Part shown: one piece after another, positions 22,682-40,079 of the stretch | How the letters are laid out: each line of letters begins with the position of its first letter | Position numbering within the stretch: the first letter of the stretch is position 1 | Assembly (NCBI RefSeq): GCF_000331225.1 | Contig: NZ_ANFY01000003.1 | Location: forward strand, 124,001 to 188,000 | Reading direction: 5' to 3' | Source: Sandarakinorhabdus sp. AAP62 | Lineage (GTDB): Bacteria; Pseudomonadota; Alphaproteobacteria; Sphingomonadales; Sphingomonadaceae | DNA length: 64,000 bases | Program-made: the position numbers and the translations under genes | Notes under the pieces: generated by a model | What the model was told of the DNA's origin: nothing | The model's input: only the letters and a program-made list of their open reading frames with translations | The model's database searches: none

Positions 22682-23344
22682 GTGCTGGCGCCGCCCAGCC
22701 ATGCCGAACTGAAGGCCCGCCACCGCGCTGAGCGGGACGGCTGGGCCAGCCGCGACCTGTCGATCCGCATCCACCGCGCACTGAGCTGGCTCGGCCGCTC
22801 CGACAGCGAAACCGACGACGAGGATGTGCGCTTCCTGCTGCTGTGGGTGGCGTTCAACGCTGCCTATGCCGGGCCGATCACCAATGAAAGCGTGTCGGAA
22901 CGCGAGGCCTTTCGCCGCTATTTCAGCCTGCTGCTGATCTGCGATCGCCATCGCCGGATCGCCGATGCCATCCACCAGCGTTTCAGCAACGAAATCCGCG
23001 TGCTGCTGGCCAATCCCTATGTCTATGCCCCGTTCTGGCAACACCAGGCCGGCGAGGGTGGTCACGAGGAATGGCAACTGTGGCTGGAGCGGGACAACCG
23101 CGCCGCGCAGACCGCCCTGCTGAGCGGCGAGACGGATCGGGTGCTGTCCATCATCTTTGGCCGGCTCTATGTGCTGCGCAACCAGCTGGTGCACGGCGGC
23201 GCCACCTGGAACAGCGCCATCAACCGCAACCAGGTCCGCGACGGCGTGCGCATCCTTTCATGGCTGCTGCCGATCTTCATCGACCTGATGATGGATGCGC
23301 CCGACGCTGATTGGGGCGGCCTGCATTACCCCGTGGTGGATTGA
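22682..23344 (+). CDS. HEPN-like protein of unknown function
   Basis: A 220-residue, mainly helical protein starting with GTG only 3 bp after sufA, so probably co-transcribed with it. The motif LRNQLVHGG near residue 170 (Arg, then His five residues later) fits the R-x4-6-H motif of HEPN domains, which are often RNases, and the preceding FLLLWVAFNAAY block is typical of HEPN-like proteins that act on host or foreign RNA. No partner nucleotidyltransferase or antitoxin is adjacent. Function is not established. Confidence 0.75.
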   Translation: MLAPPSHAELKARHRAERDGWASRDLSIRIHRALSWLGRSDSETDDEDVRFLLLWVAFNAAYAGPITNESVSEREAFRRYFSLLLICDRHRRIADAIHQRFSNEIRVLLANPYVYAPFWQHQAGEGGHEEWQLWLERDNRAAQTALLSGETDRVLSIIFGRLYVLRNQLVHGGATWNSAINRNQVRDGVRILSWLLPIFIDLMMDAPDADWGGLHYPVVD

Positions 23345-23398: not shown

Positions 23399-24607
23399 AT
23401 GCGCTTCCCCCTCACCCGCGACGATGCTCTCACGCGCCTCTACGACTTCGTCCCCTTGGCGGGCCGCGCCTATGCCGCGCGGCGCAATCATGACGGCGGA
23501 CCGGAGGGCAAGGCGACCACCTCGCTGCTCTCCCCCGCCATCCGTCGCCGGCTGGTGAGCGAGGCCGAAGTCGCCGCCGCCGCGGTCGCTGCCCAAGGCT
23601 ATACCGGTGCGGAAAAGTTCGTGCAGGAAGTGTGCTGGCGTACCTACTGGGTCGGCTGGCTGCAGCAGCGCCCCGAAATCTGGATGCGCTGGCAGGCCGA
23701 TGTGATGCGCATGGAAGCGATGCTGGCCGAGGATGGCAAGTGGCAGCGCCGCTATGAACTGGCGCTCGCAGGCACCACCGGCATCGACTGTTTCGATGCC
23801 TGGGTGCACGAACTCATCAAAACCGGCTGGCTGCACAATCATGTGCGGATGAGCTTTGCCAGCATCTGGTGCTTCACCCTGCGCCTGCCCTGGCAGCTGG
23901 GGGCGGCGTTCTTCTACAAGCATCTGCTCGACGCCTGCCCGGCCAGCAACACGCTGGGCTGGCGCTGGGTGGTGGGACTGCAGACGGCGGGCAAGACCTA
24001 TCTGGCGCGCGCCGATCTGATCCGCGACCTGTCGGGCGGGCGCTTCATGGTGGATGCGCCGCTGGCCCGCGAAGCGGCGCCGTGGCCGGCCGACATCATC
24101 CCGCCGCCGATTCCGCCCGCACCGGTGATGCGCGCTGATCCCACGGCGCGCACCGGTCTGTTCGTCACCACCGAAGACACCAGCCTTGAAACCCTGGCCC
24201 TGCCCGGCGCCATCGTGGCGCTGGCCGCCACGCCCGATATCGGCGGCACCCCGGCGCCGCTGAAGCATCAGGTCGCCATGGCCATGCTGGCCGACGGGCT
24301 GGACCGCGCCGCGACGCGGCTGGGGCTGGAGCCCGAACGCGTGGACGCCACCTTTGGCGTGGACGCCATGCGCGACTGGGCGGCCCGCCACCGCCTCACC
24401 CAGATCATCACCGCCGATGCCCCGATCGGCCCGGTGAAGGACCGGCTGGACGTGCTGGCCCCGGCGCTGGCGGCCGATGGTGTGCAACTGGTGCGCCTGC
24501 GCCGCGCGTGGGATGATCTGGCCTGGCCGCGCGCCACCAAGGGCTTCTTCCCGTTCAAGGCCGCCATCCCTCAGCTGCTGGCGCTGCCGAAAAACGCACT
24601 GGCCTGA
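23399..24607 (+). CDS. Photolyase/cryptochrome-like FAD-binding protein with apparent domain order swap
   Basis: A 402-residue protein. Residues about 40-215 match the helical FAD-binding domain of photolyases: TSLLSP (41-46), EKFVQEVCWRTYW (72-84), TGIDCFDAWVHEL, GWLHNHVRM (143-151), and LLDACPASNTLGWRWVVGLQTAGKTYLA (176-203). The antenna-binding alpha/beta domain that should precede it is absent; instead residues about 250-400 form an alpha/beta-like region ending KGFFPFKAAIP, which resembles the end of that domain (xVFTPFxxA). The order therefore looks permuted. Similar FAD proteins are known from Rhodobacterales, uncharacterised. No clear ribosome-binding site. DNA repair or blue-light sensing is possible. 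Confidence 0.8.
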   Translation: MRFPLTRDDALTRLYDFVPLAGRAYAARRNHDGGPEGKATTSLLSPAIRRRLVSEAEVAAAAVAAQGYTGAEKFVQEVCWRTYWVGWLQQRPEIWMRWQADVMRMEAMLAEDGKWQRRYELALAGTTGIDCFDAWVHELIKTGWLHNHVRMSFASIWCFTLRLPWQLGAAFFYKHLLDACPASNTLGWRWVVGLQTAGKTYLARADLIRDLSGGRFMVDAPLAREAAPWPADIIPPPIPPAPVMRADPTARTGLFVTTEDTSLETLALPGAIVALAATPDIGGTPAPLKHQVAMAMLADGLDRAATRLGLEPERVDATFGVDAMRDWAARHRLTQIITADAPIGPVKDRLDVLAPALAADGVQLVRLRRAWDDLAWPRATKGFFPFKAAIPQLLALPKNALA

Positions 24608-37827: not shown

Positions 37828-38448
37828 ATGACGAAGCGACCTGCCCGCACCCGCCTGCTGCCCGCCGATCGCCGTGCCCAACTGGTGGCCTGCGCCGTCG
37901 CCTGTTTCGCCGATCATGGCATCGCGCGGGCCACCCAGGCGCAGGTGGCGGAGCGGGCCGGCGTATCGGTTTCGGCGGTCTATTCCTATTTCCGCACCCG
38001 CGCCGATCTGGTGACGGCGGTGCTGGATGCGGTGGCGGCGGCGATTGTCGCCATGGTGGAGGAGGCCGACGTGCCCGCCGCCCCGCTCCGCTCCGCCCTG
38101 TCCACCCTGGCCCACCACACTGCCGACATGGCGGTGGAGCAACCCGATACGGTGCGCGTGTGGCTGGACTGGAGCACCGGCGTGCGCGCCGATGTGTGGC
38201 CGCGTTACCTGCTGCTGCAGGGCCAGTTGCAGGCGCACGTGCGCGCGATCCTGGCCCGAGAAGCGCCCGCCAGCCCGGCGCTCAATTCGGCGGCGCGGCT
38301 GTTCGTTGGCGGGGCGCACACGTTGGCGCTGATGCGGTTTGAGCAGGTGAGCGCCGCCGAACTGGCGCTGTTCATCGATCAGATGGTGGGTGGCACGCTG
38401 GCGGCGCTCAGGCCAGATTCGTCAGGAATGCCGCTGCCTGTGCCCTGA
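37828..38448 (+). CDS. TetR-family regulator of the divergent diiron/isomerase-like operon
   Basis: A 206-residue TetR protein: ADRRAQLVACAVACFADHGIARATQAQVAERAGVSVSAVYSYFRTRADLV is a typical helix-turn-helix with recognition helix VSVSAVYSYF. The ligand domain is Trp- and Ala-rich and resembles fatty-acyl or aromatic-compound sensors only in outline. It is divergent from the diiron/isomerase-like operon, with two palindromic operators between, so it probably represses both directions. Its last 41 bp overlap the convergent cryptochrome gene. ATG at 37828 is used. Confidence 0.88.
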   Translation: MTKRPARTRLLPADRRAQLVACAVACFADHGIARATQAQVAERAGVSVSAVYSYFRTRADLVTAVLDAVAAAIVAMVEEADVPAAPLRSALSTLAHHTADMAVEQPDTVRVWLDWSTGVRADVWPRYLLLQGQLQAHVRAILAREAPASPALNSAARLFVGGAHTLALMRFEQVSAAELALFIDQMVGGTLAALRPDSSGMPLPVP

Positions 38449-39931
38449 TCCGCGCTTGCTCTTCGGGCGCGAAGCGTCGCCAGCCGTCGTACATGCGCCA
38501 GAGGCGTTGGTTGCTGCTGAGCAAGGCCTCATGGCGGGCGAGGAAGTCCCAGTAGAGGGCGTTCAGCGGGCAGGCGTTGGGGCCGGTGCGTTGTTTGACG
38601 TCGTAGCGGCAGTGTTTGCAGTGGTCGCTCATGCCGTTCACGTAGGCGCCGCCGGCGGCGTAGGGCTTGGTGGCCATCAGGCCGCCGTCGGCGAACTGGC
38701 TCATGCCGATGACGTTGGGGGCTTCGACCCATTCGATGGCGTCGGCATAGACGGCGAGATACCAGCGGTGGACTTCGCGCGGGTCGGTGCCGACCAGCAT
38801 GGCGAAATTGCCCAGGATCATCAGGCGCTGGATATGGTGGGCCATGGCGTTGCGGCTTGTGGCGTCCACGGCTTCGCTGAGGCATTTCAGGTCGGTGGGT
38901 GCGCCCCAGAACAGGGCGGGCAGGGGGCGGGTGGCGGCGAGGTGGTTACGGGCGGTGTAGTCTGGCCCGGCAAACCAGTAGAGGCCGCGCACATATTCGC
39001 GCCAGCCGAGGATCTGGCGGATGAAGCCTTCCACCGCGTTCAGTGGCGCGTGGCCGGCGTGGAAGGCGGCTTCGGCGGCCTGGCAGATTTCCAATGGCGA
39101 GAGCAGGCCGAGGTTGAGGGCGGGGGCGAGCAGGCTGTGGTTGAGCACGTCTTCGCCGGTGACCATCGCGTCCTGGTAGTCGCCGAAGCCGGGCAGGCGG
39201 TGGGTGATGAAGTCTTTCAGCGCCGTCAGCGCCTCGGCGCGGGTGACCGGCCAGGCGAAGCTGTCGAGGCTGCCGAAGTGGTTGTGGAAACGGGCTTGCA
39301 CCAGCGCCAGCACATCCAGCGTGATGGCATCGGGGGCGAACCGCAGCGGGGGTGTGAAGCGGTGGCCTTTCGGCACGGATTTGCGGTTTTCCTGATCGTA
39401 ATTCCACTGGCCGCCCACCGGCTGATCACCGTCCATCAACAGGCCGGTTTGCCGGCGCATGATGCGGTAGAAATCCTCCATGATCATGCGTTTGCGGCCC
39501 TTCGCCCAGGCGGCGAACTGTTCAATGGGGCAGAGGAAGCGGTCATCATCCAGGATGGTCAGCAGCAGGCGGGCGCGTTCGGCCCATGCGCGCTGGCTTT
39601 CCACCACGCGCCATTCGCCGCCCGCAACCGTGACGATGCGGGTGGCGTTGTGGCGGGCAGCGGCACGGGCCACTTCGCCGGCGAAATCACCCGTGTTGTG
39701 CGCGTCGTCCAGCGTCACATAATCCACTGTCCAGCCCTGTTCGCGCAACTCCTTGGCGAAGTGGCGCATGGCGCTGAAGAACAGCGCGATTTTCTGCGGG
39801 TGGTGGGGGACGTAGGTGGCTTCCTCCGCCACCTCCATCATCAGCACCACCGCGCTGGCCGGGGTGACGGCGCGCAGGCTGGCGAGATTGTGGGAGAGTT
39901 GATCGCCCAACAAGGGCACAAGGATGGTCAT
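38408..39931 (-). CDS. FeS bacterial cryptochrome/(6-4) photolyase (PhrB/CryB type)
   Basis: A 507-residue protein of the FeS-BCP family. It starts with VPLLGDQLSHNL and has the ribolumazine/FAD-type domains in usual order. Cys350, Cys438, Cys441 and Cys454 fall on exactly the same residue numbers as the [4Fe-4S] ligands of Agrobacterium PhrB. Other family traits are EGFIRQILGWREYVRG and VIGMSQFADGG. PhrB repairs (6-4) photoproducts, while CryB in Rhodobacter acts in light signalling; either is possible here. Its 3' end overlaps the TetR gene. It would depend on the SUF system for its cluster. Confidence 0.93.
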   Translation of the reverse strand: MTILVPLLGDQLSHNLASLRAVTPASAVVLMMEVAEEATYVPHHPQKIALFFSAMRHFAKELREQGWTVDYVTLDDAHNTGDFAGEVARAAARHNATRIVTVAGGEWRVVESQRAWAERARLLLTILDDDRFLCPIEQFAAWAKGRKRMIMEDFYRIMRRQTGLLMDGDQPVGGQWNYDQENRKSVPKGHRFTPPLRFAPDAITLDVLALVQARFHNHFGSLDSFAWPVTRAEALTALKDFITHRLPGFGDYQDAMVTGEDVLNHSLLAPALNLGLLSPLEICQAAEAAFHAGHAPLNAVEGFIRQILGWREYVRGLYWFAGPDYTARNHLAATRPLPALFWGAPTDLKCLSEAVDATSRNAMAHHIQRLMILGNFAMLVGTDPREVHRWYLAVYADAIEWVEAPNVIGMSQFADGGLMATKPYAAGGAYVNGMSDHCKHCRYDVKQRTGPNACPLNALYWDFLARHEALLSSNQRLWRMYDGWRRFAPEEQARIRAQAAAFLTNLA

Positions 39932-40079
39932 AGGGTGGGTGTGGCCGGGGTGAGTGTTGGCTTCAACACGGCGCGGTGTCGCGCGGCACCCCTCACCCGC
40001 AACGGGAGAGGTGATAGGTTGCGGGCCTTCGCCTCCCGAGTAAGCTCCTCGCAGAAAAACCGCCGGGGAGGCCACAGCC

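What the first reader, a model, noticed from the sequence alone, without database searches (positions are those of the whole stretch)
23399..24607. Photolyase-like protein with domains in reversed order
The helical FAD domain of photolyases (residues about 40-215, including the GWLHNHVRM and ASNTLGWRWVVGLQT blocks) is at the N-terminus. The alpha/beta antenna domain expected before it is missing there, but residues 250-400 look alpha/beta and end in KGFFPFKAAIP, resembling the end of that antenna domain. This suggests circular permutation. Relatives seem to exist in Rhodobacterales but I know of no functional description.
Basis: partly seen in the sequence, partly recalled or inferred. Interest (0 to 1): 0.6.

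Follow-up and report, generated by a model that had tools for sequence, protein, structure and literature searches.

The report
Light-driven DNA repair enzyme, domains swapped
This gene very likely makes a light-powered DNA repair enzyme whose two parts sit in the reverse of the usual order; enzymes of this kind are already in the literature, so it is a further example of a known kind rather than a discovery.

Summary
ORF 23399-24607 (+), 402 aa, has the photolyase FAD domain at its N-terminus (PF03441 E 3.7e-20; model residues 1-231 on photolyase FAD domains, best Z 15.3). Residues 249-402, modelled within 241-402 alone (pLDDT 90.4), match the N-terminal antenna domain of photolyases and cryptochromes (best Z 10.8; 46 of 50 listed entries). 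Profile comparison agrees (score 31.2; 0 of 300 shuffles reach it). A bridging family, antenna-like genes directly behind lone FAD-domain genes, links both (P 4.6e-10 and 2e-5). So the order is reversed and the second domain is an antenna homologue. But it is not new: it fits the NewPHL/SPL photolyases ('inverted domain topology', PMC13274461, passages; Phr7 = FAD + C-terminal Z-domain, CPD repair in single-stranded DNA, PMC9426592, passages). CPD-type active-site residues are kept. Activity is inferred. Secondary: 21 of 21 sampled alphaproteobacterial genomes with a full-length relative also carry a PF04244-type (6-4) photolyase, against 63 of 268 others; here it lies 14 kb away.

The parts
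23399..24607 (+). CDS, 402 aa, NewPHL-type photolyase with reversed domain order
23399..24091 (+). N-terminal FAD (catalytic) domain, residues 1-231; last part of the canonical FAD profile not matched
   Evidence: PF03441 E 3.7e-20; VIA-align rows cover model residues 1-231, best 1iqr Z 15.3, rmsd 2.5, 210 aligned
23825..23851 (+). GWLHNHVRM block, residues 143-151; N147 and M151 align to N349 and M353 of the A. nidulans photolyase chain
23942..23968 (+). ASNTLGWRW block, residues 182-190; N184, W188, W190 align to N386, W390, W392
24092..24142 (+). proline-rich linker between the two domains, residues 232-248
   Evidence: no helix or strand in the model
24143..24604 (+). C-terminal alpha/beta 'Z' domain, residues 249-402, homologue of the photolyase antenna domain
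24539..24571 (+). KGFFPFKAAIP, residues 381-391, end of the antenna-like domain
   Evidence: G382 and F384 the same in 33 of 33 rows; inside the antenna match
38408..40021 (-). PF04244-type prokaryotic (6-4) photolyase (FeS-BCP family), possible functional partner, 14 kb away; start codon not settled
   Evidence: PF04244 E 5.6e-84

Best explanation
The gene encodes a NewPHL-type CPD photolyase. The N-terminal helical domain binds FAD and the lesion; blue light excites reduced FAD, an electron passes to the cyclobutane pyrimidine dimer, the dimer splits and the electron returns. The C-terminal alpha/beta domain is a reduced antenna-domain homologue that in this class follows instead of precedes the catalytic domain and probably closes off the FAD site, standing in for the missing last part of the canonical FAD domain. 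Expected substrate: CPDs in single-stranded DNA. SHOWN here: the two predicted folds, their order, the homology of the second domain to the antenna domain, conservation, and active-site residues. INFERRED: FAD binding, repair, single-strand preference, and the sealing role (the last recalled from the abstract of Emmerich et al. 2020, which is not held).
For: Architecture and folds. Antenna homology: Z profile (29 sequences) against an antenna profile (30 sequences) score 31.2, P 2.2e-4, Prob 45%, with 0 of 300 column shuffles reaching it (best 21.2) and 14.1 for the reversed profile; bridge by Phr5-like genes, P 4.6e-10 to antenna and 2e-5 to Z, shuffle maxima 22.9 and 17.8 of 120. Residues aligned to the A. 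nidulans chain: E77=E283, W80=W286, N147=N349, M151=M353, N184=N386, W165=W367, W188=W390, each in 33 of 33 rows; W190=W392 in 32 of 33; their roles in CPD photolyases are recalled. Published class with this order and ssDNA CPD repair: PMC9426592 and PMC13274461 (passages). No FeS cysteines: the four Cys (79, 131, 158, 180) all lie in the FAD part, as stated for Phr7. The genome has a separate canonical photolyase and a PF04244-type (6-4) photolyase. The 33 rows form one group against canonical and SPL rows, support 100/100.
Against: No characterised NewPHL sequence was at hand, so membership rests on architecture, residues and named relatives. The distal Trp of the triad (W115=W314) is Trp in only 3 of 33 rows, the three of the window's own clade, so electron supply to FAD is not the canonical chain in most of the family. 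Position 180 is Cys here instead of the Asp in 30 of 33 rows; it lies in a stretch near FAD in photolyases (recalled), so FAD binding might be altered. Z against antenna alone is modest (Prob 45%); the universal stress protein 7ji4 scores within 1 Z of the best photolyases (Z 9.9, 113 aligned), and four listed FeS-type (6-4) rows reach only segment residue 131-134. No Foldseek match of the second domain alone passes E 0.001.
Confidence: 0.82

Rival explanations
1. The C-terminal domain is not an antenna homologue but a separately acquired alpha/beta domain of the wider HUP/universal-stress-protein type, so this is a domain replacement, not a reversed order.
For: Universal stress proteins appear among the fold matches (7ji4 Z 9.9 rmsd 2.9 over 113; 5cb0_A 8.9; 2pfs 8.7; 5ahw_D at rank 2 in Foldseek), and no Foldseek match for the domain alone passes E 0.001. 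Plain HMM comparison of Z and antenna found nothing.
Against: Photolyases, cryptochromes included, fill 46 of 50 entries and most of these rows reach the last segment residues 155-162 (about 145 aligned), where the three USPs stop at 129-137; but four FeS-type (6-4) rows also stop at 131-134. Profile similarity to the antenna is far above shuffles, and the Phr5-like bridge links Z to antenna.
Confidence: 0.1
2. It is a blue-light sensor (cryptochrome-like) rather than a repair enzyme.
For: Trp triad incomplete in the family; Cys for Asp at position 180 in this clade; the genome already has two other photolyases.
Against: The CPD-contact residues E77, W80, N147, M151 are the same in 33 of 33 rows and W190 in 32 of 33; two members of the published class are reported to repair CPDs (PMC9426592, passage); nothing follows the Z domain.
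Confidence: 0.1
3. A decaying or misassembled photolyase gene whose antenna part was lost, followed by fortuitous coding sequence.
For: The last part of the FAD profile is unmatched.
Against: 32 full-length relatives from several phyla align end to end, dN/dS well below 1 in both halves, confident fold for the second half.
Confidence: 0.01

Closest known systems
NewPHL photolyases (Emmerich et al. 2020, Nucleic Acids Res 48:12845; paper not held, known here through passages of PMC9426592 and PMC13274461)
   Same: N-terminal FAD domain, C-terminal Z-domain, no N-terminal antenna, no FeS cysteines; a sphingomonad, Erythrobacter litoralis, is already listed with one (PMC13274461; its order recalled)
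   Different: Cys at position 180 where 30 of 33 rows have Asp; the nine close orthologues L003-L011 share the Cys
Phr4/Phr5/Phr6 of marine Synechococcus and Cyanobium (PMC9426592, passages); SPL proteins (Xu et al. 2021, not held)
   Same: FAD domain first, antenna-like domain second, as two adjacent genes or one
   Different: separate group in the tree; the second domain is closer to the canonical antenna; FeS cysteines are reported in Phr4 and Phr6, though several of the SPL-type rows found here lack them
Canonical photolyase of the own genome (G000:C4:246920-248272)
   Same: FAD-domain fold
   Different: antenna domain first, FAD profile matched over 2-202 of 203
PF04244-type prokaryotic (6-4) photolyase, window 38408-40021 (-)
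   Same: photolyase superfamily (named in PMC9178010 and PMC9426592); found in 21 of 21 sampled genomes with a full-length relative
   Different: N-terminal DPRP domain

Membership tests
NewPHL | Photolyase FAD domain at the N-terminus, no antenna domain before it | tested here: met
   PF03441 at 74-199; model 1-231 on photolyase FAD domains; open frame only 420 codons
NewPHL | Short C-terminal alpha/beta Z-domain | tested here: met
   residues 249-402, pLDDT 90.4 for 241-402 alone; antenna-like fold and profile. That this equals the published Z-domain rests on the description in PMC9426592
NewPHL | No FeS-cluster cysteines (as stated for Phr7 in PMC9426592) | tested here: met
   Cys only at 79, 131, 158, 180
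NewPHL | CPD-type lesion-contact residues | tested here: met
   E77, W80, N147, M151 in 33 of 33 rows; W190 in 32 of 33; roles recalled
NewPHL | Groups with the characterised D. shibae and M. mesophilicum proteins | not testable with these tools
   their sequences were not at hand; nearest named stand-in Ruegeria sp. TM1040 (Rhodobacterales) lies in the same supported group
NewPHL | Light-dependent CPD repair in single-stranded DNA; FAD photoreduction | not testable with these tools
   needs protein
Class I / canonical photolyase | Antenna domain N-terminal to a complete FAD domain | tested here: not met
FeS SPL (Phr4/Phr6) | FeS cysteines after the FAD domain, place in the SPL group | tested here: not met
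   no Cys after residue 180; falls outside the SPL rows
Cryptochrome DASH | TIGR02765 above its curated cut-off | tested here: not met
   47.5 bits against a cut-off of 317.05

The most novel reading that the evidence does not exclude
Reversed-order photolyases arose by a change of gene order, passing through a two-gene stage (FAD gene first, antenna gene second, still found in alphaproteobacteria) and later fusing; the NewPHL Z-domain is the end point, an antenna turned into a lid. In the sampled alphaproteobacteria the reversed-order forms occur only beside a PF04244-type (6-4) photolyase (29 of 29 genomes, counting the eight lone FAD forms examined), suggesting that they work as a set.
Probability: 0.35. 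Interest if true: 0.42.

Novelty: new member of a known kind. Interest (0 to 1): 0.22.

Why it matters
The gene itself adds one more NewPHL, in Sandarakinorhabdus. The useful by-products are evidence that the Z-domain is a true antenna homologue, a possible series of evolutionary intermediates (split, fused, reduced), and a strong co-occurrence with the PF04244-type (6-4) photolyase. These bear on whether photolyases began without an antenna domain or lost and moved it: published proposals place SPL-type proteins near the root (PMC9498864 and PMC9649867, passages).

Tried and rejected
Rejected: gene decay; unrelated second domain; DASH membership. A conserved operon was considered because UbiB/AarF kinase and/or DUF3429 genes sit near the relative on all four plasmids looked at; but in the 21 sampled genomes every PF11911 and PF03109 match is on another contig or about 39 kb or more away, so it was dropped. 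'NewPHL as a substitute for DASH' (recalled from the 2020 abstract) could not be tested inside this class: 0 of 289 genomes pass the TIGR02765 cut-off. Plain HMM comparison of Z and antenna found nothing (best E 0.08), nor did Z against the single L058 C-terminus (Prob 5%); among the sequence comparisons only profile against profile worked. The phage records gave only partial matches, 0 of 10 covering 80%. Domain packing could not be checked: the box held no model coordinates. One search read minus-strand loci on the wrong strand and was redone. Two short frames that might have been further lone FAD genes, one of them (G060) in a genome without PF04244, were looked at on checking: both are canonical photolyase pieces cut by a contig end.

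Rows left out: of 17 full-length genome-contig loci 9 are in A1 (near-copies dropped), and the partial L019, L020 and the other-family L022, L023 are not; of 20 non-own full-length loci (L035 dropped as a near-copy of L033); of 8 plasmid records covering at least 80% of the query, 4 were fetched and used. The structure alignments A2 and A3 have 29 rows (no plasmid rows). The tree used 16 of 30 canonical rows; the program flagged ten rows for odd composition and a long-branch join of canonical rows and relatives. The Phr5 profile used 7 of 8 lone-FAD loci plus the Deinococcus C-terminus; two of the seven (L046, L050) alone reach only E 0.49 and 0.24 against the antenna HMM; the eighth (L048) also has such a gene, seen only on checking.

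Full report
The ORF and its two halves. Window 23399-24607 (+) encodes 402 aa. The window lies in a 3.1 Mb genome whose closest named relatives of this gene are in Sandarakinorhabdus (85-92% identity for the three named species). Pfam finds only FAD_binding_7, residues 74-199, profile positions 1-124 of 203; NCBIfam gives photolyase and cryptochrome hits far below their cut-offs. In the PDB by sequence the best match is the photolyase 4u63 (E 7e-16, query 9-200, chain 229-415), that is, the second half of a normal photolyase aligned with the first half of this protein.

Structure. AlphaFold2 on a 29-row alignment gave pLDDT 92.1, pTM 0.91. Foldseek and VIA-align place model residues 1-231 on photolyase and cryptochrome FAD domains, best 1iqr Z 15.3, rmsd 2.5 over 210 residues. 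Residues 241-402 were modelled alone (pLDDT 90.4, pTM 0.85). Foldseek ranks cryptochrome 6k8k_G first but only with E 2.9e-3, no match passes 0.001, and universal stress proteins, methylglyoxal synthases and others are mixed in. VIA-align lists photolyases or cryptochromes in 46 of 50 entries, mostly aligned to chain residues about 2-165 (the N-terminal antenna domain), Z up to 10.8, about 145 residues, rmsd about 4; four FeS-type (6-4) entries (6dd6, 3zxs_A, 9hnk, 9q8f) align over 113-117 residues only. The other four entries are three universal stress proteins and a trypanosome mitoribosome factor that also matches the FAD part. The USP 7ji4 ties in Z (9.9) over 113 residues, so the fold alone does not exclude a USP origin.

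Homology of the second domain. A Z profile (29 sequences) against an antenna profile built from 30 alphaproteobacterial photolyases aligns collinearly over 96 columns, score 31.2, P 2.2e-4, Prob 45%. 300 column shuffles reached at most 21.2; the reversed profile scored 14.1. Among the 30 loci taken, eight carry a lone reversed-type FAD gene (L045-L050, L052, L053). In seven a same-strand frame overlaps the end of the FAD gene and resembles the antenna; on checking, the eighth (L048) has one too. Those seven, with the C-terminus of a fused Deinococcus plasmid protein (L058; PF00875 E 7e-4, below the Pfam cut-off), form a profile that matches the antenna with P 4.6e-10 and the Z-domain with P 2e-5; 120 shuffles reached at most 22.9 and 17.8 against 64.9 and 36.6.

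Active site. Taking the HMMER alignment and the A. nidulans chain numbering, E77=E283, W80=W286, N147=N349, M151=M353, N184=N386, W165=W367, W188=W390, W190=W392. All are the same in 33 of 33 rows except W190 (32 of 33). N and M at 147 and 151 are the CPD-type pair where (6-4) photolyases have histidines (recalled). The distal Trp W115 is Trp in only 3 of 33 rows, those of the window's clade; W135 and W157 are invariant and could serve instead (inference). C180 replaces an Asp seen in 30 of 33 rows; the nine close orthologues share the Cys.

What is known. [quoted passage not shown] 2020. The same paper reports Phr4/Phr5 and Phr6 with reversed domain order. PMC13274461 (passages) speaks of NewPHLs or SPLs with inverted domain topology and lists Erythrobacter litoralis among their sources. 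The Emmerich and Xu papers are not held; what I know of their abstracts is recalled. The word NewPHL occurs in 4 held papers; I read passages of one of them. I saw no statement on the co-occurrence below in the passages read, which is not a claim that none is in print.

Distribution. In 289 alphaproteobacterial genomes 21, the own one included, have a full-length relative at E 3.1e-59 or better; the next match is at 1.5e-29 and is a lone FAD form. All 21 also have PF04244, the domain of the prokaryotic (6-4) photolyases, against 63 of 268 others (Fisher P 7e-13; within the 170 genomes with any match, 21 of 21 against 60 of 149, P 4e-8). With the eight lone-FAD genomes it is 29 of 29, against 55 of 260. 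The lone forms were taken from the 30 best loci only, so more may exist. Genomes are related, so these P values overstate independence; I did not correct for phylogeny, and FeS cysteines of the PF04244 proteins were not checked one by one. In the window the partner is at 38408-40021 (-), PF04244 E 5.6e-84. The genome also has one canonical photolyase.

Tree. With 59 FAD-domain rows, the 33 full-length rows, 16 canonical photolyases and 10 SPL-type rows each form one side of a branch (support 100/100, 100/100, 80/61); the program warns of long branches between the canonical rows and the relatives.

Verdict. A genuine reversed-order photolyase, correctly spotted, most likely a single-strand CPD photolyase of the NewPHL class; a new member of a known kind. 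Its biochemical activity, chromophore content and domain packing remain untested.

Noticed in passing
window 38408-40021 (-): PF04244-type prokaryotic (6-4) photolyase 14 kb from the NewPHL gene in the same window; a cysteine cluster of CxxC type is visible near its C-terminus.
   Followed up: partly
289 alphaproteobacterial genomes: Every genome with a full-length relative (21 of 21) or one of the eight examined lone reversed-type FAD genes (8 of 8) also has a PF04244-type (6-4) photolyase, against 55 of the remaining 260.
   Followed up: partly
L045-L050, L052, L053: Phr4/Phr5-like gene pairs in alphaproteobacteria: a lone FAD-domain gene followed on the same strand by a small overlapping antenna-like gene, 8 of 8 loci.
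   Followed up: partly
window 23936-23938 (residue 180): Cys in place of the Asp found in 30 of 33 rows, in the DxDxASN stretch; shared by the nine close orthologues.
   Followed up: partly
window 22682-23344 (+): 220-aa ORF without a Pfam match (E up to 0.01) between iron-sulphur assembly genes and the photolyase gene.
   Followed up: no
PDB 7pub_Ff / 7pua_Ff: A chain of a trypanosome mitoribosomal small-subunit assembly intermediate matches both the FAD part and the antenna part of this photolyase.
   Followed up: no
NZ_CP097153.1: Deinococcus sp. QL22 matches the fused reversed-order protein of another Deinococcus across two annotated genes.
   Followed up: no
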